Shown piece by piece: positions 18,745 through 40,426 of a DNA stretch of 64,000 nucleotides (within the stretch, counting starts at the first letter, position 1; each line of letters starts with the position of its first letter). This DNA comes from a virus: the IMG/VR virus record IMGVR_UViG_3300046543_000266, positions 153,606-217,605 of that record; one strand, 5' to 3'. The position numbers and the translations under genes were made by a program. Under the pieces are notes generated by a model. The model saw only the letters and a list, made by a program, of their open reading frames with translations. It did no database searches and was not told the DNA's origin.

Positions 18745-19218
18745 TTAATAGTCGGCTACTGCGGTGTGATAGCAAACGATGCCGCGTGCGCGCCACATAT
18801 CGACTACGCATTGACGATCGTCGAACGCCATGAACACGTCGGCCAAGTCGAAGCCCGCTTGCTGCACGATCCACGGCTTGTAGTCTTCGTCCGACATCTT
18901 CGCAAGACCGTGGAGGCCGGGCGGACGCATCAGCAGTTGATCGTTGGTGATCTTCGGGCCAACGTACTCGTGAATCTGGTGGAGCGTCATACCCCGATAC
19001 TCAGGACCGTCGCCACGGCTGGTAACGAACAGCATGTGGAACGCCGGATTGTCGTAGAAGGCGCGGTAGACGTGTGCTCCTTGTGGGATCACCGTGTCAT
19101 TGACCGTTGCCTTGATGTAGGCTTCACGATCACCCTTGAAGTAGTGGGCCGTGCGATGGCTGGAGTTGATGAGGCAGCCGTCCAGATCACAGATGACCAG
19201 CTTGATTGGTGCTTGCAT
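18745..19218 (-). CDS. HAD-family phosphatase (polynucleotide 3'-phosphatase-like)
   Basis: 157 residues. VICDLDGCLIN is HAD motif I (both Asp), FVTSRGD is motif II, and FMAFDDRQCVVDMWRARGI is motif IV, all in the order of the T4 PNK phosphatase domain and 5'-nucleotidase-like HADs. No kinase domain is attached. It could dephosphorylate nucleotides or DNA ends, or a sugar phosphate for the neighbouring island. Confidence 0.75.
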   Translation of the reverse strand: MQAPIKLVICDLDGCLINSSHRTAHYFKGDREAYIKATVNDTVIPQGAHVYRAFYDNPAFHMLFVTSRGDGPEYRGMTLHQIHEYVGPKITNDQLLMRPPGLHGLAKMSDEDYKPWIVQQAGFDLADVFMAFDDRQCVVDMWRARGIVCYHTAVADY

Positions 19219-19251
19219 GAGGGAACCTCGTTGGGTTGGTTGTGGAGATGA

Positions 19252-19704
19252 TCAGTTGGCGGCTGCGGTTTCCGGCGACGCGAGCAGCAGTGCGCGCTCA
19301 GCGATCATGCGTTGCTTGGTGCGACGCTTCTCCAACAGCAGCGCGAAGTAGAAGATCGCGTCGAGAAGCGTTTCGTCCAGCGACTCGGTGGCATTCGCAT
19401 CACCTTCAACGTTGAACACGTCGTAGTTCAGCAGTTCGCACTGCGTCTCGAGGCGGTCGATCTTGCGCCAGATCGTGAAGAAGGCACCCGGTCCCACACG
19501 CTTGCACCACGACGCGCCGTACTCGCTGTCCTTCTTGATGCCGAGGTCGACCAGTTCGTTCATCATCTGGCGGATGTTCTCGAAGTTGGTATGCGGCAGG
19601 TCACGGTCTTGAATCAGCGAGTTGGGGAAAAAGGACACGCCGAAGTCCGGATGCAGCATCGACTGTTGTTTGGGTTGTTGGGGTTGTTTGGGTTGGTTGC
19701 TCAT
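19252..19704 (-). CDS. DUF1599 (Nmad1)-like protein
   Basis: 150 residues. N-terminus Gln/Pro-rich. Then IKKDSEYGASWCKRVGPGAF, IWRKIDRLE, and LDETLLDAIFYFALLLEKR, the spacing of the DUF1599 / 'nucleotide modification-associated domain 1' family, an all-alpha MazG-like fold. Such domains are found beside nucleotide-hypermodification genes, as here, and may act on modified nucleotides. Ends overlap the next gene by 4 bases. Confidence 0.55.
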   Translation of the reverse strand: MSNQPKQPQQPKQQSMLHPDFGVSFFPNSLIQDRDLPHTNFENIRQMMNELVDLGIKKDSEYGASWCKRVGPGAFFTIWRKIDRLETQCELLNYDVFNVEGDANATESLDETLLDAIFYFALLLEKRRTKQRMIAERALLLASPETAAAN

Positions 19705-19901
19705 GTTGGTTCCTTGGGTTGGAAGCGGTTCAATACTACGGCGGTTCCGTCAGCGCTAATACGTTGCCACACTAGCGCTTTCTCTTCGACGCTGAGGAAT
19801 ACCCAATTGTCTACTTCGAATTGGGTACGACCGCAGCCTTTGCATTTGGCGTCGAAGAGCGTGGAACACACGCCGATACATGGGGTGTCGAGTCCGTGCA
19901 T
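19701..19901 (-). CDS. DUF1289 family cysteine-rich protein
   Basis: 66 residues from ATG 19901 (the ORF extends to a GTG at 19925, but TAATG coupling with the upstream stop favours the ATG). PCIGVCS...CKGCGRTQFEVDNW matches the DUF1289 pattern with four cysteines, a likely small metal-binding protein. Role unknown; usually a short accessory protein in proteobacteria. Confidence 0.7.
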   Translation of the reverse strand: MHGLDTPCIGVCSTLFDAKCKGCGRTQFEVDNWVFLSVEEKALVWQRISADGTAVVLNRFQPKEPT

Positions 19902-20995
19902 TACTTCATCCGGCGGCCGAGCCACATGATACCGGCGGTCAGCCAGTCGTTGCCGAGCTTGGTGTCGAGGTCAAGCTGGAGGCACTGCTTGTTGTACGTG
20001 AGCAGAGCCAGACCGCTCGCCGTGTCGCCGGCCTTGTGCATGTTGTAAGCCCGAGCCATCGGCATTGCCACGTAGTCCAGGAACTGGTTCTCGTAGTCAC
20101 GGGGGTTCACCTGCTCGGTACACACCGTGACGAAGTCGCGCAGTTCGTCTTCGAATTCATCGCTGTCAGCTTGCAGCGGCAGCGGTGCCACGTCTTCGTC
20201 ATACCGACCTGGATAGGCCAGACCACCCTCGACCCCACGGAAGCCGTTGCCCGCGCGCTCGATGAACCGCTTTGTTACGTCGAACTCCGTGTAGATGTGC
20301 AGGTTGTTGGACACCTGATAGTAGTTGCCAACTTCGACGCCGATCTTGTTCGCCAGATATTCATGGAGGAACGCGAAGTGAACGGCGTTGGCGCCGTAGG
20401 CACCCCAGATCATGTCGTTGCTACGGTTCGTCACCGTGATATTGAGCTTGCCCTGACAGATGTCGACGTAGACCGCGGTATTGCACGGCAGGTCCTTCGA
20501 CGTCTGGTTCAGCAGATCCGACGGCTTATACTCGTTGTACATGCCGATGCCGCTTTCGTGCTCGACATCTTCGCCCTTGCCGTCCCACATGCTGATCACA
20601 CAGCGACGGCTGCCCGGATTCTTGCGCAGTTCGGCGATCACGGCGTCCAGCTGATCGTAGCCGAAGTGGTTGCGCCAGCGGAAGCCATACGCGCCGTTGA
20701 GCGTCTCACCGTCGTCGGTGTACTGGAGCATCTGCTTGGCATAGTAGCCGATGGTCGCCACGTCGTTGTTGCCATTCAGCATCCACATGCTTTCGATCAG
20801 GTGGAGGAACGGGTTGGCGTCGCGAGCCTTGCTGAACGACACACGGTGCATCGGGCTCGACCACATGGTCGTCACCGGACGGGGGAAGCGCAGGACCGGA
20901 CCGTTGCGGCTGTCGGTGACAACACCGTTGGCGAGGATCTGGGGGATGCCAATGCTGAGGGCATGGTCCGGGTTAGCTGCATGAATCACAAACAT
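19901..20995 (-). CDS. Thymidylate-synthase-family enzyme (possible dUMP/dCMP hydroxymethylase)
   Basis: 364 residues from ATG 20995, with AGGAG six bases before it. LPCNTAVYVDICQGKLNITV has the catalytic Cys of the thymidylate synthase fold (PCN instead of PCH), followed by NRSNDMIWGAYGANAVHFAF in place of RSxDxxLGxPxN, then YYQVSNNLHIY with the conserved HxY. The family makes dTMP or 5-hydroxymethyl-dUMP/dCMP. The altered substrate loop and adjacency to a thymine-hypermodification-family gene suggest it makes a modified pyrimidine, but plain dTMP synthesis cannot be excluded. Confidence 0.75.
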   Translation of the reverse strand: MFVIHAANPDHALSIGIPQILANGVVTDSRNGPVLRFPRPVTTMWSSPMHRVSFSKARDANPFLHLIESMWMLNGNNDVATIGYYAKQMLQYTDDGETLNGAYGFRWRNHFGYDQLDAVIAELRKNPGSRRCVISMWDGKGEDVEHESGIGMYNEYKPSDLLNQTSKDLPCNTAVYVDICQGKLNITVTNRSNDMIWGAYGANAVHFAFLHEYLANKIGVEVGNYYQVSNNLHIYTEFDVTKRFIERAGNGFRGVEGGLAYPGRYDEDVAPLPLQADSDEFEDELRDFVTVCTEQVNPRDYENQFLDYVAMPMARAYNMHKAGDTASGLALLTYNKQCLQLDLDTKLGNDWLTAGIMWLGRRMK

Positions 20996-21040
20996 GAACA
21001 ACTCCTATGAGAAGGGTTTGATTGGTTGCATACACCAGCT

Positions 21041-21047
21041 TATTTAC
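21041..21047 (-). promoter_or_regulatory. GTAAATA promoter-like motif
   Basis: Minus-strand GCGTAAATAAG in the 70-base gap before the thymidylate-synthase-like gene, about 45 bases upstream of its start. One base short of the AGTAAATA consensus. Confidence 0.5.
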
Positions 21048-21066
21048 GCGCTGGCTTAGAGTTGGA

Positions 21067-22071
21067 TTAGGAGCCTTTGTAGCCGCTGCGAGGCTCGCCT
21101 TCACCGCTGATGACGCGGCAGTATTTGTCGTACTCGCACAGACAGTTGCTGAGGTTCGCTGCGCTCAGGTCGACGAAGCCCGTCTCGAAGCTACCGGACC
21201 ACCACTTCGGAGGCACGATCGTCTTCGCCAACTTGTTCATGTCGCGGCGCAGCTTGACCATCGGCTCGTTGAGAGCATTGCCGCGGACGTCGGCTTTACG
21301 ACCGCCGCTCATCACTCGGTTCATACCCCGCGTAGTGCCCGGTCCAGGACTAGTGAACGTCTCGATGTCCGTGGCATTCATCAGCCACTTCTGGCTGTAC
21401 GTCAGGTCGACGATAACCTGATATGCCATGAACGGTCCCCAACCTTGATACTCACGAAGGGTGGATACGGCCTCTTCCTGGGACTCCTTGAACTTACTGC
21501 GCAATTCCTTGCGATCCTTCCACAGCGGATCCAGCCCAAAGTACGGGATGTAGTAAGCCTTGCTGTTGTCCGGCGGGTTCGTGCCCTTCGGGAACACGCT
21601 GTTGACGATGTAGGCACCGGTGATCAGCTTCTGCTTCTCGTTCTTGATAGCGTTGAACGTGGCGTAGGCTTTCTTGGCACTCCAGCCGTCGACTGGGAAG
21701 CTACCTTCGTCCATCATGCGTTGCAGCGTATCCGGCCAGTTGATGATACGAGCCAGCGCCAGCATGAACCACAGGTCCGGATGGTTCTGGTACGGCGTGA
21801 TGATGTTGTCGATTATCCACTTGCTGACCGTGTCGAGCTCACGGTAGATGTTGCAGAAGCGGTAAGCGCGCAGCACTGGATCGTTGGTCCACGGCTTGGC
21901 CTTGCCTACGTGATAGCGCTTCAGGTAGATAGAGTGGCGCTCGATCCAGAACTTCGTGATCGACTCTACCTTGTTTTGATCTTCGGGCTGGAACAGATAG
22001 GGCAGCTTCTTCGGAGCCGCCGCTGGCTGATCAAACAGACTGCCTTGACTGGCGTTTGTTTTGCGCTTCAT
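21067..22071 (-). CDS. Thymine-hypermodification protein (5-hmdU DNA kinase helical / aGPT pyrophosphorylase family)
   Basis: 334 residues from ATG 22071. Diagnostic segments in order: PWTNDPVLRAYRFCNIYREL, HPDLWFMLALARIINWP, WGPFMAYQVIVDLTYSQ, FTSPGPGTTRGMNRV, and C-terminal NCLCEYDKYCRVISGEGEPR. This all-helical, DNA-glycosylase-like family is described in phages with hypermodified thymine (phages such as SP10, ViI and phiW-14) where members act on 5-hydroxymethyl-dU in DNA or on its pyrophosphate derivative. It overlaps the next gene and lies next to the thymidylate-synthase homologue. Which clade it belongs to cannot be set by eye. Confidence 0.7.
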   Translation of the reverse strand: MKRKTNASQGSLFDQPAAAPKKLPYLFQPEDQNKVESITKFWIERHSIYLKRYHVGKAKPWTNDPVLRAYRFCNIYRELDTVSKWIIDNIITPYQNHPDLWFMLALARIINWPDTLQRMMDEGSFPVDGWSAKKAYATFNAIKNEKQKLITGAYIVNSVFPKGTNPPDNSKAYYIPYFGLDPLWKDRKELRSKFKESQEEAVSTLREYQGWGPFMAYQVIVDLTYSQKWLMNATDIETFTSPGPGTTRGMNRVMSGGRKADVRGNALNEPMVKLRRDMNKLAKTIVPPKWWSGSFETGFVDLSAANLSNCLCEYDKYCRVISGEGEPRSGYKGS

Positions 22072-22376
22072 TTGAATAAGCCTCGTGTTCTTTGATTGGC
22101 AATCGTTGCCAGATACGTACCGTGACAGCGCTTGGGATTGCACCAACATCCGAGACGCTGTCCTTTTAAATCACGGCGGATCTCGTCTCGGGTTGGTGGC
22201 GTTTCTCCGTTAGGTGCTTCGAGCAATCCGTCTAGCCACTTCATGTGCTTGTCGCAGCATTCGGTACGCGTGCCGTGAACGCCGACCACAAAGGGATTGC
22301 CGTACTTCTGAGGCCTCCCGATGTAGACGTCGTATTCGGATCGCTCGCAGTGGACAACCAACGGATGGTTCGTCAT
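22068..22376 (-). CDS. DUF4326 family protein
   Basis: 102 residues from ATG 22376, overlapping the sulfotransferase stop (ATGA). VYIGRPQKYGNPFVVG and LKGQRLGCWCNPKRCHGTYLATIAN are the two signatures of DUF4326 (small protein with CWC..CHG, likely metal-binding). Often found in phages; role unknown. An in-frame start at 22424 is less likely because it would overlap the upstream gene by 50 bases. Confidence 0.75.
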   Translation of the reverse strand: MTNHPLVVHCERSEYDVYIGRPQKYGNPFVVGVHGTRTECCDKHMKWLDGLLEAPNGETPPTRDEIRRDLKGQRLGCWCNPKRCHGTYLATIANQRTRGLFK

Positions 22377-23167
22377 AGCAGGAAGTGTTCGGCTTCGATT
22401 GCACGAGTGCGCCAGTACATGCACTGGTCACCGAGCGACATGTTGCGAATGTCGTCTTCGGAATAGTACCCGAGCACCTTGCGCGCCAGCGTGTCCACGG
22501 TATGTGCGTGGGTTGTACCCCTATTTACGCTGCCGACCATTTCGTAGCCGAAGAGCTTGAAATCGCGCTCGTACAGACGGTTGATCAGGCCCAGAACATC
22601 TTCGTCCAGTTCTTCGATTTTCAGCTTCGGACCAGTCGGATACTTCGTCTGATCCTTCGAGTGGCCGAACTCTTCGGTTTCCACGCCGATCATTTCACGC
22701 ACCGTTTTCCAGTCGGCATCAAGGCGCTCGTAGCGGCCGATGAAGTCAGCGTAGCACTTGTTGCCTTGATAGAAGAAGTAATGCTGCGGGCAGAAGTGCG
22801 TGTACTTCCAGTCGAAGCGCACACTTACTTCGTTCAGATTGCGGCGCGCGAATTCGTTGAAGTCGGCATCGGCCGGCAGATTGTGTTGGCGCTTGTGCTC
22901 GGCCCACGAACTGATGAGACGAGTGTACGGATCACGCACGAAGCCGAACTTGAAGTACTCCTCGAAGTAGTGATGGGGCCACACTGCCGGGATGTCGGCA
23001 ACGCACACGTGGAACACTTCGATCACACGTTCGAGCTTGGGAATGAACGACTGGTAGTCCAGCTTCAGCGGGTTGCTGTCATACTGGAAGAGGGTGCGGC
23101 GAATCGACGTTCCTGCAACCTTTGGGTTGTGCAAAAACATGAACTTGTTTTGGTCACTGATGATCAT
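22373..23167 (-). CDS. PAPS-dependent sulfotransferase
   Basis: 264 residues. FLHNPKVAGTSIRRTLF (residues ~11-27) is the 5'-phosphosulfate-binding loop of the Sulfotransfer_2 family and FKFGFVRDPYTRLISSW (residues ~74-90) is the 3'-phosphate-binding motif with the Arg..Ser pair. Later segments (FIGRYERLDADWKTV) match the family too. It moves sulfate from PAPS to a hydroxyl, usually on a carbohydrate. No signal peptide or membrane helix, so it is cytoplasmic, unlike cell-surface glycan sulfotransferases. An APS-kinase-like gene lies 5.4 kb upstream in the same gene run. Confidence 0.8.
   Translation of the reverse strand: MIISDQNKFMFLHNPKVAGTSIRRTLFQYDSNPLKLDYQSFIPKLERVIEVFHVCVADIPAVWPHHYFEEYFKFGFVRDPYTRLISSWAEHKRQHNLPADADFNEFARRNLNEVSVRFDWKYTHFCPQHYFFYQGNKCYADFIGRYERLDADWKTVREMIGVETEEFGHSKDQTKYPTGPKLKIEELDEDVLGLINRLYERDFKLFGYEMVGSVNRGTTHAHTVDTLARKVLGYYSEDDIRNMSLGDQCMYWRTRAIEAEHFLL
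22522..22528 (-). promoter_or_regulatory. GTAAATA promoter-like motif (intragenic)
   Basis: Minus-strand GCGTAAATAGG inside the sulfotransferase gene, about 145 bases upstream of the DUF4326 start. Matches 7 of 8 bases of the motif; may be chance. Confidence 0.3.
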
Positions 23168-24059
23168 TGAGCAGTCTCTTGAGGTATTCGCGGTCTTTGT
23201 TTTGAAACGCCAGTTCGGCCTTCAGTAGTAATTTACCCTTCTCGCGGAACTTGGCGCGCTTTTCTTTGTCTTTGAACAGGCCCGGTGCGTTCATGAAGTC
23301 GACGCGCAGGAAGGACGCAACGTGCTGAGCTTGCTTGCCGCGCTTGATCAAACCTGGGAACATCACCATCTGGCGCAGGAACGAGTCGTGGACATGCTGG
23401 ACCTTGCGCTCGCTGCCTGCACCACCTTGATCTTTCGGGTCGAAGGTGGTGTTCCACAGCATGTGATAGTCGACGACCGAACGATAGCCGTTGCACAGCA
23501 CCGCCAGATTGTGAACTGTGTCGATGCCCCACAGATCGCGCGTTTCCTTCTTGTCGATGCAGTGCAGCAGGATGTTCACATCGTAGCCCGCGACGTTGGT
23601 ACACTTGTGATTCTTGCGCTCCAGTCCCCAACGTTCGATGATGTTCTTGTGCATGAAGTAAGCGCCAGCGCCGACCAGCGCGTTACCCTTGCGGAACAGT
23701 TGCGGAGCCCTCTTCAGGAACCACTCGTCCGCAGCGCTGATGTCTTTGGTTGCGCCCACGTACTTGTCACCACGACGACCGTAGAACAGCATGTCGTCCT
23801 CTATCACCATTGCGAACTTGGCCCCCTGCTTGCGATGATGATCGAACACCGAGTAGCGCTTGTTCGGCAGCAGGATGTCGTCCTTGGTGCGCAAGAAGTC
23901 CACGTGCTTGGCGTAGGCTTCCTTCTTGTGGGCCGCATGCTCTGAGGCCGGGCACACCACTGTGATGTGCTTCTGCACTTCAGGGGACAGGTAGGACAGC
24001 GTCTTCTGCCGTCCTACTCGCCCCTTGGTCAGCAGGTAGATGTGGTAGTCTTTATCCAT
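23154..24059 (-). CDS. GT-A glycosyltransferase, TET-associated type (TAGT-like), copy 3
   Basis: 301 residues from ATG 24059. DYHIYLLTKGRVGRQKTLSYL then HITVVCPASE is the N-terminal strand-loop of the TAGT-like glycosyltransferases of phages; AMVIEDDMLF supplies the DxD-like metal site. Later FRKGNALVGAGAYFMHK and DVNILLHCIDK fit acceptor-side segments. This family was described with TET/JBP-type base-modifying enzymes and is proposed to glycosylate modified bases in DNA. Start overlaps the HNH-like gene by 8 bases; end overlaps the sulfotransferase start by 14. Confidence 0.65.
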   Translation of the reverse strand: MDKDYHIYLLTKGRVGRQKTLSYLSPEVQKHITVVCPASEHAAHKKEAYAKHVDFLRTKDDILLPNKRYSVFDHHRKQGAKFAMVIEDDMLFYGRRGDKYVGATKDISAADEWFLKRAPQLFRKGNALVGAGAYFMHKNIIERWGLERKNHKCTNVAGYDVNILLHCIDKKETRDLWGIDTVHNLAVLCNGYRSVVDYHMLWNTTFDPKDQGGAGSERKVQHVHDSFLRQMVMFPGLIKRGKQAQHVASFLRVDFMNAPGLFKDKEKRAKFREKGKLLLKAELAFQNKDREYLKRLLNDHQ

Positions 24060-24570
24060 ATGATACGTAGGTTCCAACCCACCCTTTATGGTGTTCTTTT
24101 ATACCGCCGCAGACGGCCTTCATGCAAGAGTAGTCTAGACCGTGAATGCGGCATAGACCCCTGAGATTGTTTCCAATGTAGCTCACCCAACGTGGAGAAG
24201 TCACGTGGTAGCCGCGCGCCAGCTTGTTGCCAATCTCCACATCACCGCCGTTGAGGGCGCGCTCCGACAAGTTCTGAGCGGTTGTGATGAACCGGCAGTT
24301 ACCCCAGACGTAATCACCGACGTCACCGAGGCGACCCATCTGGAATTCGGATACTGCCTTTCCGATCTGATCGGGGTGTTTTATACCGGCACGTTTCGCG
24401 AGCTTCATGTACTGGCGGAAGGTCAGCAAACAGACGCAACCACGACGACTAGCATTTCCGCGTAGATCGCGCCATTTCCTTCGCCATTGAAACCAGTAGC
24501 TCTGATCGAAGCTGAGCTTCTGCAGCACACCACAAGCTTCCTCTTCAGTTAGAACACGATCCCGAGTCAT
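24052..24570 (-). CDS. HNH-type homing-endonuclease-like protein
   Basis: 172 residues. FRQYMKLAKRAGIKHPDQIG, then RLGDVGDYVWGNCRFITTAQN, resembles the GxYxxxNCRxxxxxxN core of HNH/AP2-type phage endonucleases, and the C-terminus (LCRIHGLDYSCMKAVCGG...HHKGWVGTY) is like the small DNA-binding modules at the end of homing enzymes. The 39780-40397 gene is a paralogue. It is inserted between two glycosyltransferases and overlaps one of them by 8 bases. Confidence 0.6.
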   Translation of the reverse strand: MTRDRVLTEEEACGVLQKLSFDQSYWFQWRRKWRDLRGNASRRGCVCLLTFRQYMKLAKRAGIKHPDQIGKAVSEFQMGRLGDVGDYVWGNCRFITTAQNLSERALNGGDVEIGNKLARGYHVTSPRWVSYIGNNLRGLCRIHGLDYSCMKAVCGGIKEHHKGWVGTYVSYG

Positions 24571-25337
24571 TAGACCAGCCCTCCGATTTTAGCAGCACCC
24601 CTCCAACTGATGCGAGTGTTGGAATCCGGGTGTTGGGCCGATGGCGGCTTTTCCTTCACGACATCGGGGTGCAGCTTGAGCAGCTTCTGCAGCGCAGCCT
24701 TCGCCATATCACGGGTACGTTCACCTTCTAGCCCACCTGGAGCGTCGGCCTTACGCTGCGCCACCGCCATGTCGTACGTGAGGGCGATTCGCGTTCCACC
24801 CTTGAGTAGTTGGAGCGTGTAGTCTATGTCCTCGTACGGAAATAAACGATCCCACACGATCTTCTTTACGGTGCCGCGGGACATGCCGAAGGCGAATCCT
24901 AGATGGCTGTTCTCTTTGATACCACCCTTCGGCGCGAAAGCCTTGGTCCCGAGCCCGACGCACTTGTAGCGCGAGCACAGGTCCGGAAGCACCTTGGTCC
25001 AGAAGCCCTTGGTCACTTCGGGAACCGTCGACGCCACGACGTGCTTGTCCTGCTCCTTATCGAAGGCATACAGGTACAGATCGTCGTCGAACATGAACGC
25101 GTACTTGTGCGGGCTGTTCTCCATGATCCACTGGCGCTTGGCACTCAGCGTCTGGATGGACTTCGGCTGCGCCAGCACGTTGACCTTCGGGTAGTTGGCC
25201 TTGAGGATAACGACTTCATCCTTGGGGCATACCAGAGTGACGTGACCGTGCATTCCCTTAGGCAACCGCTCGACCGTCAGCTGGTTGGCAGTACGGCCCC
25301 GCGTTGGGATGTAGATATGATAGTTGATCTTGGACAT
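24570..25337 (-). CDS. GT-A glycosyltransferase, TAGT-like, copy 2
   Basis: 255 residues. NYHIYIPTRGRTANQLTVERL and HVTLVCPKDE at the N-terminus; FMFDDDLYLYAF is the DxD site; FGMSRGTVKKIVWDRLFPYEDIDYTLQLL is the acceptor/donor-binding helix region with an EDxD. C-terminus Pro/Asp/Ser-rich. Paralogue of the genes at 23154 and 27633. Likely adds a sugar from a nucleotide-sugar to a modified base in DNA or another phage acceptor. Start shares one base with the upstream stop. Confidence 0.7.
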   Translation of the reverse strand: MSKINYHIYIPTRGRTANQLTVERLPKGMHGHVTLVCPKDEVVILKANYPKVNVLAQPKSIQTLSAKRQWIMENSPHKYAFMFDDDLYLYAFDKEQDKHVVASTVPEVTKGFWTKVLPDLCSRYKCVGLGTKAFAPKGGIKENSHLGFAFGMSRGTVKKIVWDRLFPYEDIDYTLQLLKGGTRIALTYDMAVAQRKADAPGGLEGERTRDMAKAALQKLLKLHPDVVKEKPPSAQHPDSNTRISWRGAAKIGGLV

Positions 25338-26071
25338 CAGAAGCGAGCCTCGTTTCTGCGTTGGAATTCCGCCAGATGCTCAGGCGTACCCAGATTGGTG
25401 AACTGACGGGTCTCGAAGTACCGCAGCGGCAGTCGTGTGATCCCGTTGATGACGGCGCTCAGTGGCAGTTCGGCATAAGGCTTTCTGTTGCGCTCGGCTT
25501 CAAGGAACGCATCCGCCATGTCGTCCACGTTACGGAACCAGTAGCAGCCAGTGTTGATGTAGTCGGAGATCCGCAGCTTCTCGGACAGACCATGGAACAC
25601 GGCAGTCTTACGCCACGCCGAATGATACTTGGCTGGATTGTTCAGGAAAGAGTACTCTTCCGACCCGCTCTTGTCTTCGTAGGCAATGACGCCGGAGCTG
25701 CCCTCGATGACTGCTTCGGTCATGGTGTACTTGAGGTCGACGTGTGCCGAGCAGTCACAGTCGAAGATGATGACCGGTCCTTCACGCGGTGGATCGCACA
25801 TCAACGCCAGAGCCATCGCGCTGAATGCCGGACCCGGCGAAACGTCTTCGAGATAGTGGACGGCCTTGAAGGTATCCCCGTACTGTGCGAGCAGCTCCTC
25901 GTCCTTGCGCAGGATCAGGATCTCGACGTCCGACGGTTCCAGCCCATACGAGTCGATAACCCATCGGTACATCGGGACGCCCGGAAGTACTTCGATGAAC
26001 GGCTTGCTGACCGGGAATCCCTGCTCCCGGAAGCGTGAGCCCATTCCGGCGGCGGACATTAGATAGCGCAT
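25337..26071 (-). CDS. Sugar nucleotidyltransferase
   Basis: 244 residues. LMSAAGMGSRFREQGFPVSKPFIEVLPGVPM is split as MSAAGMGSRF (the GxGxR nucleotide-binding loop) and PVSKPFIEV (the KP lysine); FDCDCSAHVD holds the Asp pair for metal; C-terminal GTPEHLAEF matches the family ending. It activates a sugar phosphate to an NDP-sugar (NTP_transferase family, like glucose-1-phosphate thymidylyltransferases), so it can feed the glycosyltransferases beside it. The sugar cannot be told. Confidence 0.75.
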   Translation of the reverse strand: MRYLMSAAGMGSRFREQGFPVSKPFIEVLPGVPMYRWVIDSYGLEPSDVEILILRKDEELLAQYGDTFKAVHYLEDVSPGPAFSAMALALMCDPPREGPVIIFDCDCSAHVDLKYTMTEAVIEGSSGVIAYEDKSGSEEYSFLNNPAKYHSAWRKTAVFHGLSEKLRISDYINTGCYWFRNVDDMADAFLEAERNRKPYAELPLSAVINGITRLPLRYFETRQFTNLGTPEHLAEFQRRNEARF

Positions 26072-27597
26072 GATTGCTGTTCCATGAGTTGGTATATTTC
26101 TTGGCCCTTCTTGAACAGAGCCAGTTGTCGTTGCAGCGAATCGCTGTGTAGCGGCAGCATTGAGAAGAACAGCAGCGCAGTCATCGCCAGCACTTCTTGG
26201 AAGTCGATACCGAAGCGCTCCCGAACTACGACGCTGAAGTAACTAATGACCTCACGGTTCAGCGGAGGCGGGTTGATTGCCGAGACACTGTAGTGCCCGG
26301 CGATAATCGAGTCGTAGCCAACCATCGAGTGCAGCAGCTTTGCCAACTCGTAGCGGACGTCGCCGTATATGGAGCGCTCGTCGAATCCGTTGAGGCCGCG
26401 CGGGTCAAACACCTTGATGCTATTAGTGCGATGGTCATACGCGATGTTGCTGAAGCACAGGTCACCATGAACTACCGAGATACGGTCAGGGCGATCGGGT
26501 ATCTGTGCGATGCAGTGCTCGGACAATGCCGTAAGCTCAGGCACAATCTCCGAGAAGGTGTCGGACTGGCCGCTGGACTGACCACTGAGTTGTAGCTGCT
26601 GGATGCGCTGGCGAGTCTTACCTTCGATGAGCTCACGGAACGCCGCCGCTTCATGCAGGACGGTCTCTGAGTCGATATGGTGTCCCGGGTCACCACCAAT
26701 GAAGTCGAGGCACTTGTCGATGATGGTGTGCCACACACCAAACTCTTGATTGCCGAACACGTACAGTTCAGCCAGCGTCGGCAGCGGCAGGTACTCGATC
26801 TCGTAGGATCCGTAGCAGTCGTACGACAGCAGGGCCGGAGTGTACTTACGCAGCTTGACTGGGAGGTTGCTGTACCAATCGAACTCAGCGTGGATCTTGG
26901 CTGGAGTACCACTCTTACTCACCACGTTGTCTTCGATGCGAAGTTGGTTGAAATGCCGCGACGTCAGGAAGTTCTGCTTGGACAGGAAGTAGGTAGCAGC
27001 GTGTCCGAAGTCAAACCAGTCGACGCCGTCCGTATAGTCCTGATAGGTTACGGCGACTTCGTCGTGAATCCAATCCAGGGCTTCACTGATATCGTCGTCA
27101 GGTGCTATCACACGCGCTACCGTGTTGAGCGGAGCCATGAAGTATCCGATGAACACAGCATTGCGGCCGTTATCCAAGCGTATATCCAACCAGTTGAAGT
27201 TACCCGGACGGGTCGCAGCCACCCCGATGCACGGAGTGGTCGCCCACTTGCTGATCAGTGTATCGCCCCACAGAACGTGTAGTTCCACACCCTCACAGTT
27301 TCGAGCACCGTTCAAGTGGTTCACTATCCTGGTCACCGCATAGTACAGAACGTGCGACAACGGACGTGGGTGCTTGGACGAGTACTCACTTAACATGGTC
27401 ACGCGATCATCGCACGGCGGCATCGGGAAATCTTCCGGATGTGTGACAAATACCTTGTCGAAGTCTGCACCCATCTTCAGCTGATGTTGGATCAACGACT
27501 TGCCAGCTACCGGAATGCGTGAGGCGGGCAGCTTACCGAACATGAACTGAAGCTCGGGGTTGCACAGCGCTGAAGACAGGATAAGCAGGACCTTCAT
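26059..27597 (-). CDS. Bifunctional nucleotidyltransferase-like / APH-type kinase
   Basis: 512 residues from ATG 27597 (upstream leader contains an AGTAAATA motif at 27630). N-terminal ~230 residues resemble a nucleotidyltransferase fold with degenerate motifs (LPASRIPVAGKSLIQHQL for the SKP loop). C-terminal ~280 residues hold the aminoglycoside-phosphotransferase catalytic motif VVHGDLCFSNIAYD and the DxG-like KVFDPRGLNGF. Such two-domain proteins occur in capsule and choline/sugar phosphate pathways. It may phosphorylate then activate a small sugar or polyol for the adjacent glycosyltransferases. Overlaps the next start by 13 bases. Confidence 0.6.
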   Translation of the reverse strand: MKVLLILSSALCNPELQFMFGKLPASRIPVAGKSLIQHQLKMGADFDKVFVTHPEDFPMPPCDDRVTMLSEYSSKHPRPLSHVLYYAVTRIVNHLNGARNCEGVELHVLWGDTLISKWATTPCIGVAATRPGNFNWLDIRLDNGRNAVFIGYFMAPLNTVARVIAPDDDISEALDWIHDEVAVTYQDYTDGVDWFDFGHAATYFLSKQNFLTSRHFNQLRIEDNVVSKSGTPAKIHAEFDWYSNLPVKLRKYTPALLSYDCYGSYEIEYLPLPTLAELYVFGNQEFGVWHTIIDKCLDFIGGDPGHHIDSETVLHEAAAFRELIEGKTRQRIQQLQLSGQSSGQSDTFSEIVPELTALSEHCIAQIPDRPDRISVVHGDLCFSNIAYDHRTNSIKVFDPRGLNGFDERSIYGDVRYELAKLLHSMVGYDSIIAGHYSVSAINPPPLNREVISYFSVVVRERFGIDFQEVLAMTALLFFSMLPLHSDSLQRQLALFKKGQEIYQLMEQQSCAI

Positions 27598-27629
27598 TAT
27601 GACCTCGGATTGTTGTGGGCGTACTACCC

Positions 27630-27637
27630 TATTTACT
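27630..27637 (-). promoter_or_regulatory. AGTAAATA late-promoter-like motif, overlapping a stop codon
   Basis: Minus-strand AAGTAAATAGG; the TAA is the stop codon of the glycosyltransferase gene ending at 27633. Lies about 35 bases upstream of the bifunctional kinase start (27597). Confidence 0.7.
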
Positions 27638-28511
27638 TCTGGCTGGCAGCATAGCATTTCTGCCAGTAGATGATGACTTCCTTGCGGGAGATGCTCTCTT
27701 TGTACTTACGGTCCACCACCTTGACGAACGGCTCGTGCGCACGCGCCAGCTTGACCGCAGCGATGTCCGAGCGCTTGATCGTCCGCTCTTCGAATGCCCC
27801 ACCCTTTGCCCCGTAGGACAGCGGGTTGACTACGAAGTTGTTCATGATTAGATTGGGGATGCCGCGCTTGAGCAGATGCAAGGTCACGTTGAAGTCTTCG
27901 CGGAACTTGATCTCGTCGAAGCGGATGTCGTTGTCGAGTAGCGTGCGGCGGTGATGACCCATCGCGTGCATGGCGCGACCGGCTTCCATGGTTTCCTTGC
28001 GCTGCCGATTGTTGTTCTGCCGTGAAGCAATGCAGGTATGCCGATACTCACGTTCGAGCATGGCATCACGGATGAAGTCGAAGCGGCGGATCTTCTGCTC
28101 GTCGGTGAAGCCGTCCTTGAACAGGAACAGCACACCCTTCTTCTTGTACTCAGGCAGCACATCCCACTGCACCTTCTTGGGGTCGAAGGCTCGATACTTC
28201 TTGTTGCAGCGCCGGAAGAAGTACATGTCGTCGTCCATCTGGAAGATGTTGTCCGACTTGACGTTCTCGATGATCCACTGGCGCTTCTTGGCGATGCCGT
28301 CCACCGTCGGATCGTCGATAGCGTACACCAGATCGTGTTTATACTTCTTCTTTAAGGCCCGCGCATCTTCGAGGGTCGAAGTAATGAGCAGTACCTTGGC
28401 ACGCAGTTCTTCGGGGATGCCCAAGAACGTCACTTGGCGATCCACCCGTTGATGCGTTGGTATGACCAGCTGAAAGTCTTTATCAGCCACGAGGAGTCTG
28501 TTCTTGAACAT
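27633..28511 (-). CDS. GT-A glycosyltransferase, TAGT-like, copy 1
   Basis: 292 residues. FQLVIPTHQRVDRQVTFLGIP then KVLLITSTLED at the N-terminus, IFQMDDDMYFF as the DxD site, LLDNDIRFDEIKFREDFNVTLHLL as the later acidic motif and a basic C-terminus. Clearly a paralogue of the two TAGT-like genes downstream. Ends with a stop codon that forms part of the next promoter motif. Confidence 0.65.
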   Translation of the reverse strand: MFKNRLLVADKDFQLVIPTHQRVDRQVTFLGIPEELRAKVLLITSTLEDARALKKKYKHDLVYAIDDPTVDGIAKKRQWIIENVKSDNIFQMDDDMYFFRRCNKKYRAFDPKKVQWDVLPEYKKKGVLFLFKDGFTDEQKIRRFDFIRDAMLEREYRHTCIASRQNNNRQRKETMEAGRAMHAMGHHRRTLLDNDIRFDEIKFREDFNVTLHLLKRGIPNLIMNNFVVNPLSYGAKGGAFEERTIKRSDIAAVKLARAHEPFVKVVDRKYKESISRKEVIIYWQKCYAASQK

Positions 28512-28522
28512 GCCCGAGCCTG

Positions 28523-29227
28523 TTAGTAGGTGAGAACGAACTTGCGGAATCCGTCAGGTGTGTTCTCGATGGAAGGGTAGCCAGTGGCCTCGACGTTGTA
28601 CTTGGTGACGCCGTGCTCGACCGTGGTGGCGGGAACCATCAGACCACGCAGTTCGAAGTCGTCGAACAGATACTCTTCCATCGTGGCTGCGTTGATAACG
28701 CGCCACTGATTGGTGTGGCCGTCCGAATGCGTGTTGTACCGGATGTAGTACTTCTTGTGACCGGTCGTCACCACCTTGGCGATCTGACGTGCTTCCTTGT
28801 CGAACTCTTCGGCGCTCTCCAGATAGTTGCCGATCTGATAGTCCACCTCATCGTACTTGGGCGGCACGTACATCTTGTTCGTGTCCTCGAAGCGGCCCTT
28901 GTCGATGGTGTTCATCCACACCTTGAACACGTCGTCTGTGTGATCGAGGAACTGTTCTTGGAACGCGTTGCGCGTGGTTGCCAGCGGACACACGAAGTCG
29001 ACGATAACCCAATGGCCTTGGAAGTGCAGCATCCGAGCCAACTGACCGAGAGTGGTTGCTTGCTTGACGCGGTCCAGGTTGGAGAAGCCCAGATGCGACG
29101 TGATGGTGCTACGCGCCCAGTCAGCGTTGACGTGGATGGCGTTCAGCTTCTGTTGGAGAACCTTTGCCAACGTGGTCTTGCCGCTGCCGGGCAAACCCTG
29201 AATGAAGATGACTTTGTTTTGGCTCAT
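28523..29227 (-). CDS. APS-kinase-like P-loop kinase
   Basis: 234 residues. GLPGSGKTTLAKVL (residues 11-24) is the P-loop; INVDWARS-like 'NADWARSTI' is the substrate-binding loop (compare LDGDNVR in adenylylsulfate kinase); GHWVIVDFVCPLATTRNAF matches the Walker B and lid segment of CysC (SFISPYxxxRxxAR). The last ~100 residues are an extra domain with no clear match. APS kinase makes PAPS, the donor for sulfotransferases, and a sulfotransferase gene is present downstream. An alternative is a 5-hmdU or nucleotide kinase using the same P-loop fold. Confidence 0.6.
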   Translation of the reverse strand: MSQNKVIFIQGLPGSGKTTLAKVLQQKLNAIHVNADWARSTITSHLGFSNLDRVKQATTLGQLARMLHFQGHWVIVDFVCPLATTRNAFQEQFLDHTDDVFKVWMNTIDKGRFEDTNKMYVPPKYDEVDYQIGNYLESAEEFDKEARQIAKVVTTGHKKYYIRYNTHSDGHTNQWRVINAATMEEYLFDDFELRGLMVPATTVEHGVTKYNVEATGYPSIENTPDGFRKFVLTY

Positions 29228-35499: not shown

Positions 35500-35877
35500 T
35501 TAGTGAGCGGACGAATGCGTGGCCTGAACAACCGGCTCTGAGCGTATCGTCCCACCGAAAGCGTGAGCAAGCTCAACAGGATTCTCGATATCAGTGTCCA
35601 ACAGCACTTCGATGATATTGTGAATCATGGTCTCCACGCCTTCGGGGATAGAGTAGAAGAACGCCGAGTATAGTTCGACATCCCAGATTGGAACCATCAC
35701 CGCGGCGCTTACCACTGCGTCGTACGAGGTGAGGATCACCTGATGGTTAAGCATCCCTGCGACCTTGATAACGTACAGCATGTAGACCACAGGGGTGCCC
35801 TTCTTCTCTTCATCAAATATTGCCCATTCTTCGTCACCCACACGGTCCACGCTGTACCGAATGGTTGTCGTGGTCAT
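35500..35877 (-). CDS. Small unrecognised protein overlapping DNA polymerase stop
   Basis: 125 residues, acidic with mixed strands and helices (MTTTTIRYSVDRVGDEEWAIF). Start overlaps the polymerase stop (ATGA), so it is coupled to it. Unknown function. Confidence 0.65.
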   Translation of the reverse strand: MTTTTIRYSVDRVGDEEWAIFDEEKKGTPVVYMLYVIKVAGMLNHQVILTSYDAVVSAAVMVPIWDVELYSAFFYSIPEGVETMIHNIIEVLLDTDIENPVELAHAFGGTIRSEPVVQATHSSAH

Positions 35878-38800
35878 GCGGCTTCTTTCTCCTTCTTGGG
35901 TAGCGGGCTGATGTCCTTAACCGCGCTACGGATTTGTGTATCGAGGTCCTTGACGCCGAGTAATGGATACTGGTCTTGCAACCAAGTACGCATCGACTTG
36001 CTGCGCCACGGCTTGAAGATAGTTTGCAGCACGTCTTCCTGAGTACCTTCCAGCACCCCTAGCTCATCAGCATCGGCAACCGCTTGCTTGATGGCTTGGA
36101 TGCAGTTTGGCATGGACCAATCCCACTTGTAGGACTGGTCGTCGCGCGCTGCAAACTCAAGCTCGATTTCAGGCTCGACCGTGAACGTCACGTTGAACTC
36201 ATCCTTGTAGGCTTTGGTGATGCCGTAGGTAGCTTGGTACTGCATGATGTGGATCATCGGCACCACCATCTCGTACGGAACCATCAGATAGTTCGCATCG
36301 TGAACCATACGGCTGAAGAAGGCTCGTAGATCCCAGTCGCTCTTTTCAACACCGAGCTTCTGCTTGAAGAACCGCAGATGCTTGTAGTAAGCCTCCAGCG
36401 TAATGCGCGATGCCTTCACGCCGATCTCCGAAGCAAAGCCCTGCACAGGAGCGTTGGAACCACGGCGTACTTGACGGCTAACGATCTTGCGGTCCTGCGT
36501 CATGGCAGCGTACAAGTGACGGACACGACCGATGGGGCTGTACACGTAATACTCGTTTTCAGCCATCGACTGCATCTTCTCAGTCCAACGCGCACCGGCC
36601 TTAAATTCGGTGAACATCTTGTCGACGATGCCTTGAGCATATTCGGTACGGTCTTCAGCAATAAGAGCGCCCAACTGCACATCGAGTGCTTCCAGTTGCT
36701 TGTTGATCTCGATGAGGCGCTTGTTGTCCTTCGTGACCAACGATTCTTCATAGAGCGCACTGATCTTGCCCTTGAGGTTGCCCATGTCGCCTTCCTTGGT
36801 ATCGATACCCAAGGTTTCCGCACCCTTGCCGTACAGCACCCCGAACACGACCTTCTTAACGGCGTCCCGCAGCGGATGGTCCTTGTCCACCAGCTTGCCG
36901 AAGAAGCGCAGCACGTTCAGAATGTGAATGTCACCCTTCTCCTTGATGGCCTTCTTGTTGGCATCGGAAGGATCCTGAATGAACGCCTGACGCAGTGCTT
37001 GACCAGCCTGGAACGCCTCGGCCAGCACCTTGTCACCACTGGCAATCGACCAGATGCGGACTTCGTGAGCGCTATAGTCATACCGGATCATGAGGTAGCC
37101 CTTGGAGGCTACGAACATGCGCTTGATGAGCTTCGACAGCTTACCGCGCGCCGGAATCTGCTGGAGGCTTGGCCCACGTGAAGCCAGACGACCAGTGTCG
37201 ATCACATAATAGTCAGGGCTCAAGTGATCGTTGGTTGCCGCGTCAATGCTGGTATTCAGCTTCTTGTACCAACCCTTGACGTAGGTTCCCATCAGCTTGG
37301 TGAGGCCTTGCAGCTCGCCGTACAGGCTGACGATCTTGTTCTTGTCCTTGTAGTGGGCGATGAACTTCTTATCGATCTGCGGCGCACCCGTCTTAGTCTG
37401 CGTCAACGCATCCAGCCCGAGGATGTTGATGAACAGCTTCTGCTTGTGCTCGGACTTGCTGAACTTGAACATCCACGTGGCAGCCTTCGAGCCAAACAAG
37501 CTTCCGGCCTTGAAGCCCGACTCGCGGACCAGTTCGGCATTGGCTTGCTTCACTTCCTTGTGGACGCGCAGCTCGCCGGACGAACGCTTCAGCTCCTTCC
37601 GCAAGGGGCTGTCTGCTCCCAGCATATGCTTCAGATATTTGCGTTCCACCTTCGAACCATCCTGCCGCAGATGGGACAGCTGATGCGCTGTGTCCGACAT
37701 CTGGTTGAGCATGTGCCGCTCGAAGTAACGCTTGAAGTTCTTGCCAGCGATCTCCTGTGCAGCCGATCGCGCCAACTGCTGATGGTAGATGCCGACGATA
37801 GACACAACGTCAGTAGCCGCATACTCCAGGAAGCCCTTGTCCGTGGGAGGCGTGGTGCCAGTGGTTTCCCGTTCCTTCTTACTGAAGATCGCCTTGTAGT
37901 AGTGATCGTTGCCGTACTCGGAGTACGTTGGAGCCAAGCCACCGAACGTTGAACTCTTGCCGGTGTGCGGGTCGATCATGAAGGTGATGCCGTTCAGTGC
38001 GTTCTTGTTCTCATCCAGATCGTGCTCGCCGAACATGATCTCCCACACCTTGAGCCAGATGATTGGGATGCGCAAGCACTGACGGATCAGGCGCAGGTCG
38101 AACATGCCGTTGAACGTGATGAGCAACGGGCCAGTCGTAGCACTGAAGCGCCTACGGAGCTGTTGCTTGATGTACTTGCGCTCTTCTGCCGTCCAGTGGC
38201 ACAACGGATGATCGACGGACAACACATAGCCGATGTTCTCGTTGTGGTTGGTACAGAACTGGATGGTGTAGATCTTGTTATGCAACACGGACAGGTTACG
38301 TGTTTCCGTGTCGACGCCGACGTGGGTAGCTGTATCGAACCGGCGCATCAGCGCGTCGAACTTCTCGATCGTATCGATATAGCGCGGCTGTGCCTTGAGC
38401 TGAGACAGGTCGTGCGGATTGCGTCCGAGTTGCAGGTAAGCGAAGTGGCGACACCAGAAGCCCAGCAGATTGGCCTGTGCCCCATCCTTTTCGAGCAAGC
38501 GCATGAAGTCGATGGTGGACGTGACCTTGACCGGCATGTCGCCGACCTTCAGCTGATGAACCCATCCCCGCTTGTACTGCGGATACTTGATCTCGGGAAA
38601 GCAGCCGTGCATGATCTCGTCGCCACTGAACAAGATGTGCGTGGGCTTCAGCTTCTTGATGAGCTTGATGATACGGTCAGCGAAAACGCCTTCTGCCTCC
38701 CGACGCTGTAGCGGCGGAAGGTGCAGATGCTTGAACGCGTTTCCGTTGACGACGGCATAGGCCGCCTCGGGCAGCGACCCACCCTTCAGATACGGGCGTG

Positions 38801-39026
38801 CCACCTGACGACTGTACTTGATGGCGTTGCGCACCGACGAGTTGACGGTACGGTCCGACATCAGTTCACCATTGGCTAAGTCCCGACCGTCAACAGTTTG
38901 CATGACGATCAGGATACGACGCTTGGTGTTGCTCCACGTGCTGCACTTCTTCAGCACGAGGTTGTACGGCGACCTCTTCTCGAAGGCGTCCGTACCGAGG
39001 TCGAAGGAAAAGTCTTGGTCTAACAT
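35874..39026 (-). CDS. Family A DNA polymerase with N-terminal extension
   Basis: 1050 residues, longer than phage family A polymerases such as T7 (704) or bacterial Pol I (~930). Exonuclease domain near residues 240-420: VGVDTETRN (Exo I DxE), LITFNGMFDLRL and LEYAATDVVSI. Polymerase: IRYDYSAHEVRIWS (motif A), VKKVVFGVLYGKG (motif B, Lys..Tyr-Gly) and RMVHDANYL (motif C), where the usual His-Asp-Glu reads His-Asp-Ala. Residues 1-220 are an extra domain with RRILIVMQTVDGRDL and THILFSGDEI. This is the likely replicative polymerase. Confidence 0.85.
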   Translation of the reverse strand: MLDQDFSFDLGTDAFEKRSPYNLVLKKCSTWSNTKRRILIVMQTVDGRDLANGELMSDRTVNSSVRNAIKYSRQVARPYLKGGSLPEAAYAVVNGNAFKHLHLPPLQRREAEGVFADRIIKLIKKLKPTHILFSGDEIMHGCFPEIKYPQYKRGWVHQLKVGDMPVKVTSTIDFMRLLEKDGAQANLLGFWCRHFAYLQLGRNPHDLSQLKAQPRYIDTIEKFDALMRRFDTATHVGVDTETRNLSVLHNKIYTIQFCTNHNENIGYVLSVDHPLCHWTAEERKYIKQQLRRRFSATTGPLLITFNGMFDLRLIRQCLRIPIIWLKVWEIMFGEHDLDENKNALNGITFMIDPHTGKSSTFGGLAPTYSEYGNDHYYKAIFSKKERETTGTTPPTDKGFLEYAATDVVSIVGIYHQQLARSAAQEIAGKNFKRYFERHMLNQMSDTAHQLSHLRQDGSKVERKYLKHMLGADSPLRKELKRSSGELRVHKEVKQANAELVRESGFKAGSLFGSKAATWMFKFSKSEHKQKLFINILGLDALTQTKTGAPQIDKKFIAHYKDKNKIVSLYGELQGLTKLMGTYVKGWYKKLNTSIDAATNDHLSPDYYVIDTGRLASRGPSLQQIPARGKLSKLIKRMFVASKGYLMIRYDYSAHEVRIWSIASGDKVLAEAFQAGQALRQAFIQDPSDANKKAIKEKGDIHILNVLRFFGKLVDKDHPLRDAVKKVVFGVLYGKGAETLGIDTKEGDMGNLKGKISALYEESLVTKDNKRLIEINKQLEALDVQLGALIAEDRTEYAQGIVDKMFTEFKAGARWTEKMQSMAENEYYVYSPIGRVRHLYAAMTQDRKIVSRQVRRGSNAPVQGFASEIGVKASRITLEAYYKHLRFFKQKLGVEKSDWDLRAFFSRMVHDANYLMVPYEMVVPMIHIMQYQATYGITKAYKDEFNVTFTVEPEIELEFAARDDQSYKWDWSMPNCIQAIKQAVADADELGVLEGTQEDVLQTIFKPWRSKSMRTWLQDQYPLLGVKDLDTQIRSAVKDISPLPKKEKEAA

Positions 39027-40397: not shown

Positions 40398-40426
40398 GAT
40401 AAAGCCCACTTAACTAATGTGTGACC

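What the first reader, a model, noticed from the sequence alone, without database searches (positions are those of the whole stretch)
18745..29227. Candidate DNA-base hypermodification island that includes sulfation
One minus-strand run contains a thymidylate-synthase homologue with an altered substrate loop, a 5-hmdU/aGPT-family protein, a DUF1599 protein, three TAGT-like glycosyltransferases, a sugar nucleotidyltransferase, a fused nucleotidyltransferase-kinase, an APS-kinase-like enzyme and a sulfotransferase. Known hypermodified-thymine phages have parts of this; adding sulfation genes is, to my knowledge, not described. The simplest story is that thymine is hydroxymethylated, glycosylated, and then sulfated, which would protect DNA from host nucleases.
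Basis: partly seen in the sequence, partly recalled or inferred. Interest (0 to 1): 0.85.

Follow-up and report, generated by a model that had tools for sequence, protein, structure and literature searches.

The report
Phage genes predicted to sulfate DNA
A large virus of bacteria carries an operon that should turn thymine in its DNA into a sugar-bearing base and probably add sulfate to that sugar, a chemistry I found no report of in DNA; the same gene set is in an isolated phage (Ralstonia phage RSL1), so it can be tested directly by mass spectrometry.

Summary
A tightly packed minus-strand operon (18745-29227) of a 217.6-kb, probably complete phage genome encodes an M6-type dUMP hydroxymethylase, a 5-hmdU-associated DNA-glycosylase-fold protein (PF18723), three TAGT glycosyltransferases, a nucleotidyltransferase, a sugar-kinase-like protein, a PNKP-type phosphatase, a PAPS-type sulfotransferase and an APS-kinase-like protein. 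It lacks the 5-hmdU kinase and amino-acid:DNA transferase of known thymidine-hypermodifying phages. Across 67 PF18723 gene clusters those genes and TAGT never co-occur, so this is the glycosylating branch. Sulfotransferase and APS kinase occur together in 8 of 8 such islands and in none of 59 other clusters. An APS-kinase-anchored scan, blind to the island, found sulfotransferases near 15 of 80 genes against 0 of 153 controls. One island lies in Ralstonia phage RSL1. Most likely: thymine is replaced by 5-hmdU, glycosylated, and the sugar sulfated. The first two steps are well supported; sulfation of DNA is inferred. Counter-evidence: one related phage keeps the sulfotransferase without the hydroxymethylase, glycosyltransferases or kinase, and the island phages are one lineage, so the 8/8 count rests on two or three independent events. 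No chemistry has been measured.

The parts
18745..19218 (-). HAD-superfamily phosphatase, PNKP type; in similar modules it sits beside the sugar-kinase-like gene and may act on a sugar phosphate (inferred)
   Evidence: PF25109 7.2e-12, phrog_415 3.8e-26; HAD/PNK + NT-kinase pairs in phages Planchet and S-SRM01
19252..19704 (-). small conserved protein of hypermodification clusters (DUF1599-like at best)
   Evidence: phrog_1485 3.6e-05; no significant Pfam hit; family recurs in 5-hmdU clusters
19901..21001 (-). thymidylate-synthase homologue, predicted dUMP 5-hydroxymethylase
   Evidence: phrog_5131 1.7e-111; 42% identity over 99% to M6/YuA-type dUMP hydroxymethylases; Cys173 and Asn (GAYGAN) kept
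21067..22149 (-). PF18723 protein ('5-hmdU DNA kinase, helical domain', aGPT-Pplase1), DNA-glycosylase fold; likely true start at 22071
   Evidence: 3.8e-48; 38% to SN1 aGPT-Pplase1; AF2 model pLDDT 86, nearest PDB 8z2n (5-PmdU glycinyltransferase) and 8-oxoG glycosylases, weak E-values; alternative start
22068..22424 (-). DUF4326 protein overlapping both neighbours; role unknown, found near only one other island (L194)
   Evidence: PF14216 9.9e-22; contexts
22373..23167 (-). sulfotransferase, Sulfotransfer_2 family, with 5'-PSB (HNPKVAGTS) and 3'-PSB (FVRDPYTRLISSW) motifs
   Evidence: PF03567 6.2e-24; phrog_3347 2.8e-47; K16, G19, T20, R78, S86 invariant in 7 relatives; AF2 pLDDT 83.6, most top PDB matches are PAPS sulfotransferases
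23154..24077 (-). TAGT-family glycosyltransferase 1
   Evidence: PF20691 2.7e-10, phrog_842 2.6e-41
24052..24570 (-). HNH (homing-type) endonuclease inserted in the operon; probably not part of the pathway
   Evidence: phrog_2081 1.5e-07; paralogue at 39780-40409
24570..25337 (-). TAGT-family glycosyltransferase 2
   Evidence: PF20691 8.4e-38, phrog_842 1.3e-46
25337..26071 (-). sugar-phosphate nucleotidyltransferase with intact signature loop
   Evidence: phrog_3980 1.2e-16; profile matches GlmU / ADP-Glc pyrophosphorylase-type enzymes; AAGMGSR loop
26059..27657 (-). fused nucleotidyltransferase (degenerate signature) plus APH/sugar-kinase-like domain (HGDLCFSN, DPRG motifs intact)
   Evidence: phrog_24015 3.2e-96; weak APH 0.0049; profile matches sugar-1-P nucleotidyltransferases; motif comparison
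27633..28511 (-). TAGT-family glycosyltransferase 3
   Evidence: PF20691 2.4e-11; homologue beside NT-kinase in phage DLP6
28523..29227 (-). APS-kinase-like P-loop kinase, predicted PAPS supplier
   Evidence: PF01583 3.9e-15; 2yvu APS kinase best in PDB, 2.5e-18 by profile; below NCBIfam equivalog cut-offs; linked to sulfotransferases

Best explanation
The operon makes a glycosylated and then sulfated 5-hydroxymethyluracil in phage DNA. The TS homologue makes 5-hmdUMP from dUMP; 5-hmdU enters DNA in place of part or all of thymine (inferred from M6-type phages). In DNA, the PF18723 protein, with a DNA-glycosylase-like fold, recognises or flips out 5-hmdU (inferred), and TAGT enzymes put a sugar on its hydroxymethyl group instead of the amino acid used by M6/ViI phages. 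The nucleotidyltransferase, the kinase-like protein and perhaps the HAD phosphatase supply a dedicated NDP-sugar, and the further TAGTs lengthen the glycan (inferred). The APS-kinase-like enzyme turns host APS into PAPS, and the sulfotransferase transfers sulfate to a hydroxyl of the DNA-borne sugar. The likely benefit is bulk and negative charge that block host nucleases (not tested). The simplest islands (L189, L194) need one TAGT, i.e. 5-hmdU-sugar-sulfate.
For: dUMP hydroxymethylase: 42% over 99% to YuA/M6-like enzymes, motifs. PF18723 with no hmdU kinase (PF18748) and no ADDT (PF18724) in the window genome or the five ST-island records searched, with SN1 and RHph_TM26 as positive controls. 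In 67 PF18723 clusters TAGT and kinase/ADDT are mutually exclusive: 18 / 29 / 0 both, Fisher 3.8e-6. TAGT is described as a DNA glycosyltransferase family in T6-like phages (PMC13390438). Sulfotransferase: Pfam 6e-24, PAPS motifs invariant, fold. ST-anchored IMG/VR scan: 7 contigs with the full ST+APSK+TAGT+PF18723+TS set, plus the window. ST and APSK co-occur 8/8 in PF18723 clusters, 0/59 otherwise (whole records). An independent APSK-anchored scan finds ST in 15/80 loci, some overlapping or adjacent, against 0/153 control loci. A relative nested in the island clade lacks ST, APSK and TAGT together. Bacterial relatives of the ST (20 loci) have none of these partners.
Against: No chemistry. 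The island phages share one lineage (DNA polymerase 42-80% identical), so counts are not independent; the tree allows only 2-3 changes of ST/APSK. L188/L190 keep a 35%-identical ST with a UDP-galactopyranose mutase but no TS, PF18723 or TAGT and no clear APSK. The APSK-like protein falls below all equivalog cut-offs, has Gln for a conserved Asn of the DR..N motif, and most of its relatives (65 of 80) had no other island gene in reach by the first models and likewise 65 of 80 had no ST detected by the broader model. The sulfotransferase's acceptor cannot be read from sequence. Fold-search E-values are weak.
Confidence: 0.6

Rival explanations
1. The island makes glycosylated 5-hmdU DNA, but the sulfotransferase and APS-kinase-like gene act elsewhere (host small molecule, surface glycan or virion glycan) and merely travel with it.
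For: L188/L190 keep the ST beside UDP-galactopyranose mutase without the hydroxymethylase or TAGT; ST relatives in bacterial genomes have none of these partners; APSK-like genes are common in phages without the island.
Against: ST is embedded in the operon with overlapping reading frames; 8/8 co-occurrence with PF18723+TAGT+TS+APSK; a nested relative lacks TAGT, ST and APSK together.
Confidence: 0.22
2. The APS-kinase-like protein is not a PAPS supplier but a replacement for the missing 5-hmdU DNA kinase, phosphorylating 5-hmdU in DNA (or a sugar); any sulfation relies on host PAPS.
For: The M6-type kinase is absent from the window genome and ST-island records; the protein is below APS-kinase equivalog cut-offs.
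Against: Best matches are APS kinases; TAGT-type clusters without ST have neither kinase, so no kinase seems needed; its relatives lie beside sulfotransferases in phages without PF18723.
Confidence: 0.12
3. The whole run is a surface- or virion-glycan pathway, and the TS homologue is only a nucleotide-metabolism gene.
For: NT-kinase relatives sit in glycan-like clusters of cyanophages.
Against: TS and PF18723 are M6-type and linked (54 of 67 clusters); TAGT is a DNA-glycosyltransferase family; no membrane-glycan export genes were recognised in the run.
Confidence: 0.04

Closest known systems
M6 / ViI / PhiW-14 thymidine hypermodification (5-hmdU kinase + amino-acid:DNA transferase)
   Same: M6-type dUMP hydroxymethylase and PF18723 protein, both about 40% identical
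   Different: No PF18748 kinase and no PF18724 transferase; TAGTs, NDP-sugar genes, sulfotransferase and APS kinase instead
TS + aG/PT-PPlase1 + 'beta-glucosyl-HMC-alpha-glucosyltransferase' clusters of pelagiphages (PMC9599517) and the TAGT-type clusters found here
   Same: hydroxymethylase + PF18723 + TAGT, no kinase or ADDT
   Different: One TAGT, and no sulfotransferase, APS kinase or NT-kinase in the clusters scanned here
Bacillus phage SP-15 DNA (dihydroxypentyluracil with glucose and phosphoglucuronolactone, PMC5977210)
   Same: thymine-derived base carrying sugars and an extra negative charge, with an NDP-sugar gene cluster
   Different: Charge is a phosphodiester-linked glucuronate; Thy1-type synthases; no sulfotransferase reported
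T-even glucosyl-hmC DNA
   Same: TAGT family is used for a second sugar in T6-like phages (PMC13390438)
   Different: Cytosine based; no sulfation
Stenotrophomonas phage DLP6 (T4-like)
   Same: sulfotransferase, TAGT, NT-kinase and an APS-kinase-like protein in one genome
   Different: Genes are scattered; no PF18723 or M6-type TS; kinase fused to a cytidylyltransferase-like domain

Membership tests
M6/ViI-type thymidine hypermodification system | dUMP 5-hydroxymethylase | tested here: met
   42% identity, 99% coverage to M6/YuA-like enzymes; Cys and Asn kept
M6/ViI-type thymidine hypermodification system | PF18723 (aGPT-Pplase1 / HMUDK_hel) | tested here: met
   3.8e-48
M6/ViI-type thymidine hypermodification system | 5-hmdU DNA kinase PF18748 | tested here: not met
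   absent from the whole genome and five ST-island records; SN1 and RHph_TM26 positive
M6/ViI-type thymidine hypermodification system | amino-acid:DNA transferase PF18724 | tested here: not met
   absent; SN1 and RHph_TM26 positive
Glycosylating 5-hmdU clusters (PF18723 + TAGT) | hydroxymethylase + PF18723 + TAGT without kinase/ADDT | tested here: met
Glycosylating 5-hmdU clusters (PF18723 + TAGT) | sugar on 5-hmdU in virion DNA | not testable with these tools
   needs LC-MS
PAPS-dependent sulfotransferase (Sulfotransfer_2) | curated Pfam score | tested here: met
   85.9 bits against cut-off 22
PAPS-dependent sulfotransferase (Sulfotransfer_2) | 5'-PSB and 3'-PSB PAPS-binding residues | tested here: met
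   K16, G19, T20, R78, S86 invariant in 7 relatives
PAPS-dependent sulfotransferase (Sulfotransfer_2) | sulfotransferase fold | tested here: inconclusive
   best matches are sulfotransferases, but E=0.02 and low TM-scores
PAPS-dependent sulfotransferase (Sulfotransfer_2) | acts on DNA-borne sugar | not testable with these tools
   needs an enzyme assay
APS kinase (CysC) | PF01583 curated score | tested here: met
   56.6 bits against cut-off 21.1
APS kinase (CysC) | NCBIfam equivalog score (TIGR00455) | tested here: not met
   52.2 against 138.7 bits
APS kinase (CysC) | Walker A and D..R...GF..DR..N acceptor-site residues | tested here: inconclusive
   P-loop, D, R, F, R kept; Asn replaced by Gln
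DUF1599 / nucleotide modification associated domain 1 | Pfam PF07659 match | tested here: not met
   no hit for the window protein; one relative at E=0.052
TAGT glycosyltransferases (PF20691) | curated Pfam score | tested here: met
   40.9, 130.8 and 44.4 bits against 27.5

The most novel reading that the evidence does not exclude
Jumbo phages of the RSL1 lineage carry sulfated glycosyl-5-hydroxymethyluracil in their DNA, made by a dedicated PAPS-forming kinase and DNA-glycan sulfotransferase: sulfate monoesters as a natural DNA decoration, and glycosylation as a second, kinase-free branch of 5-hmdU chemistry.
Probability: 0.55. Interest if true: 0.92.

Novelty: new variant of a known kind. 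Interest (0 to 1): 0.8.

Why it matters
Known DNA hypermodifications use methyl, amino, amino-acid, polyamine, deazaguanine and sugar groups; I found no report of a sulfate ester on DNA. If true, it adds a new functional group to DNA, gives phages a cheap extra negative charge on each modified base, and predicts host nucleases or sulfatases that recognise it. The mutual exclusion of TAGT and hmdU kinase/ADDT also gives a simple genomic rule for predicting which phages glycosylate 5-hmdU and which add amino acids. One island carrier, Ralstonia phage RSL1, is a cultured phage, so the claim can be settled by one LC-MS experiment.

Tried and rejected
Single-sequence searches with the sulfotransferase and TAGT found nothing in named phages and the sulfotransferase nothing in IMG/VR; alignments were needed. 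The idea that the APS-kinase-like gene is the M6-type hmdU kinase was rejected: only a 22-residue blastp match, E=0.028, and no PF18748 match, though a functional replacement is not excluded. A DUF1599 assignment was not upheld. The HNH and DUF4326 genes were left out of the pathway. RSL1 is not in the phage record collection; it was identified by exact contig length, 231,255 bp. The founding papers on thymidine hypermodification (Iyer 2013; Lee 2018, 2022) are not held, so whether they mention RSL1 or sulfotransferases could not be checked. The first kinase/ADDT searches of the own genome had silent controls and were repeated with positive controls.
Full report
WHAT IS THERE. The window is bases 153606-217605 of a 217,605-bp virus record whose two ends share an exact 127-bp overlap, so the genome is probably complete. 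The island 18745-29227 is one minus-strand run in which most neighbouring genes overlap by 1 to 82 nt. Library searches give, in order of transcription: an APS-kinase-like protein, a TAGT glycosyltransferase, a fused nucleotidyltransferase/kinase-like protein, a nucleotidyltransferase, a TAGT, an HNH endonuclease, a TAGT, a Sulfotransfer_2 sulfotransferase, a DUF4326 protein, a PF18723 protein, a thymidylate-synthase homologue, a small conserved protein and a PNKP-type HAD phosphatase. A family A DNA polymerase lies near by (35874-39026).

THE BASE. The TS homologue is 42% identical over 99% of its length to the dUMP hydroxymethylases of YuA/M6-like Pseudomonas phages and keeps their catalytic Cys and the Asn of the GAYGAN loop. 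M6-like phages replace part of their thymine with groups built on 5-hmdU (PMC6449724, PMC9476957). The PF18723 protein is 38% identical to aGPT-Pplase1 of SN1, a close relative of M6. Its AlphaFold2 model (mean pLDDT 86) is nearest to the phage PaMx11 5-phosphomethyl-dU glycinyltransferase and to 8-oxoguanine DNA glycosylases, at weak E-values, which suggests a base-flipping DNA-binding fold.

NOT THE AMINO-ACID BRANCH. M6-like phages carry two further enzymes: the 5-hmdU DNA kinase (PF18748) and the amino-acid:DNA transferase (PF18724). Neither is in the window genome or in five related ST-island records, while the same searches ring in SN1 and Rhizobium phage RHph_TM26. Among 67 PF18723 clusters (90% identity) from IMG/VR, named phages and the window, 18 have a TAGT, 29 have the kinase or transferase, none has both, and 20 have neither (Fisher 3.8e-6). 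On the tree each trait changes about 8 times; independent pairs always go in opposite directions when both differ, but are too few for significance. So PF18723 seems to serve two alternative decorations, and the window belongs to the glycosylating one. A TS/aGPT-Pplase1/glucosyltransferase association has been noted in pelagiphages (PMC9599517); the exclusivity is, as far as I know, new.

SULFATION. The sulfotransferase has a strong Pfam score, invariant PAPS-binding residues and a predicted structure (pLDDT 83.6) whose best PDB matches are mostly PAPS-dependent sulfotransferases, though at weak E-values. A scan anchored on the sulfotransferase alone returned 13 loci. Seven contigs carry ST + APSK + TAGT + PF18723 + TS within about 10 kb: RSL1 (231,255 bp, identified by its length in PMC8504454), L186, L187, L189, L191, L193 and L194. 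Two contigs with one arrangement, taken here as one further virus (L188, L190), carry ST without them, and four are short or weak matches. Whole-record searches confirm that APSK is present in all five ST+PF18723 records tested and has no strong match in the 17 PF18723 records without ST. In a separate scan anchored on the APS-kinase-like protein, 15 of 80 loci carry a sulfotransferase, three of them overlapping the kinase gene, against 0 of 153 control loci. Of those three, two keep the full APS-kinase motif DR.EN.RR. This is the best evidence that the kinase makes PAPS. Bacterial relatives of the sulfotransferase (20 loci, 25-40% identity) have none of the island genes near by, so the enzyme looks recruited from ordinary bacterial sulfotransferases.

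THE SUGAR. The nucleotidyltransferase has an intact signature loop. The fused protein keeps kinase-like motifs (HGDLCFSN, DPRG), but its nucleotidyltransferase loop is degenerate in all five island members and intact in DLP6, Planchet and S-SRM01: division of labour between two proteins. The NT-kinase also pairs with a PNKP-type phosphatase and glycosyltransferases in Enterococcus phage Planchet, next to a pyrimidine hydroxymethylase, and in cyanophage glycan-like clusters. The identity of the sugar is not readable. Islands L189, L191 and L194 lack these genes within reach and have one TAGT, so a host NDP-sugar may suffice there.

WHAT SPEAKS AGAINST. (i) No chemistry. (ii) The island phages are one lineage by DNA polymerase (42-80% identity), and ST/APSK presence needs only about three changes on the PF18723 tree, so the 8/8 is far fewer independent observations; the APSK-anchored scan is the more independent test, though its loci are not all independent either. 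(iii) L188/L190, with a DNA polymerase 68% identical in L190's record, keep a 35%-identical ST beside UDP-galactopyranose mutase but no TS, PF18723 or TAGT; either the ST has another acceptor there or the pathway decayed. (iv) The APS-kinase-like protein is below equivalog cut-offs.

WHAT SPEAKS FOR CO-FUNCTION. A relative that nests in the island clade (L027/L040, 243-kb record; 92% SH-aLRT) lacks ST, APSK and TAGT together while keeping TS and PF18723. Island L105/L187 carries a very divergent PF18723 protein yet keeps ST + APSK + TAGT.

VERDICT. 5-hmdU with glycosylation about 0.85; sulfate on that sugar about 0.6. It is a new variant of phage thymine hypermodification. If the sulfate is confirmed it would be a new functional group for DNA.

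Noticed in passing
window 26059-27657 and islands in L104, L105, L024, L026: The nucleotidyltransferase half of the fused protein has lost its signature loop in all island members, while a separate nucleotidyltransferase gene is present (loop intact in the window, L104, L024 and L026): complementary decay.
   Followed up: partly
window 24052-24570 and 39780-40409: HNH/NUMOD-type endonuclease inside the operon with a paralogue elsewhere in the window; a homologue is also in island L026. Probably mobile.
   Followed up: partly
L190 8698-9825 and 10001-10894: A close relative of the window phage carries the sulfotransferase beside a UDP-galactopyranose mutase, without hydroxymethylase, PF18723 or TAGT: sulfation in another context, or a decayed pathway.
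   Followed up: partly
L198-L277 (APSK scan), e.g. L209, L213, L218: A roughly 250-aa APS-kinase-like protein is common in environmental phages and sometimes overlaps a sulfotransferase gene: a second possible phage PAPS/sulfation module with unknown target.
   Followed up: partly
L020 7827-13836 (Enterococcus phage Planchet): Pyrimidine hydroxymethylase, dUTPase, PNKP-type phosphatase, NT-kinase and further glycosyltransferase genes in one cluster: candidate DNA glycosylation in enterococcal phages.
   Followed up: no
L021 8007-10915, L284 1724-2338, L005 6995-7726 (phage DLP6): T4-like phage with TAGT beside NT-kinase, a sulfotransferase near the DNA polymerase, and an APS-kinase-like protein fused to a cytidylyltransferase-like domain.
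   Followed up: partly
window 56485-57462: Protein with a RyR domain (PF02026, 2.8e-10) in a phage; role unknown.
   Followed up: no
record ends (G000 1-127 and 217479-217605): Exact 127-bp overlap of the two ends, although IMG/VR classes the record as linear: probably a complete genome.
   Followed up: yes
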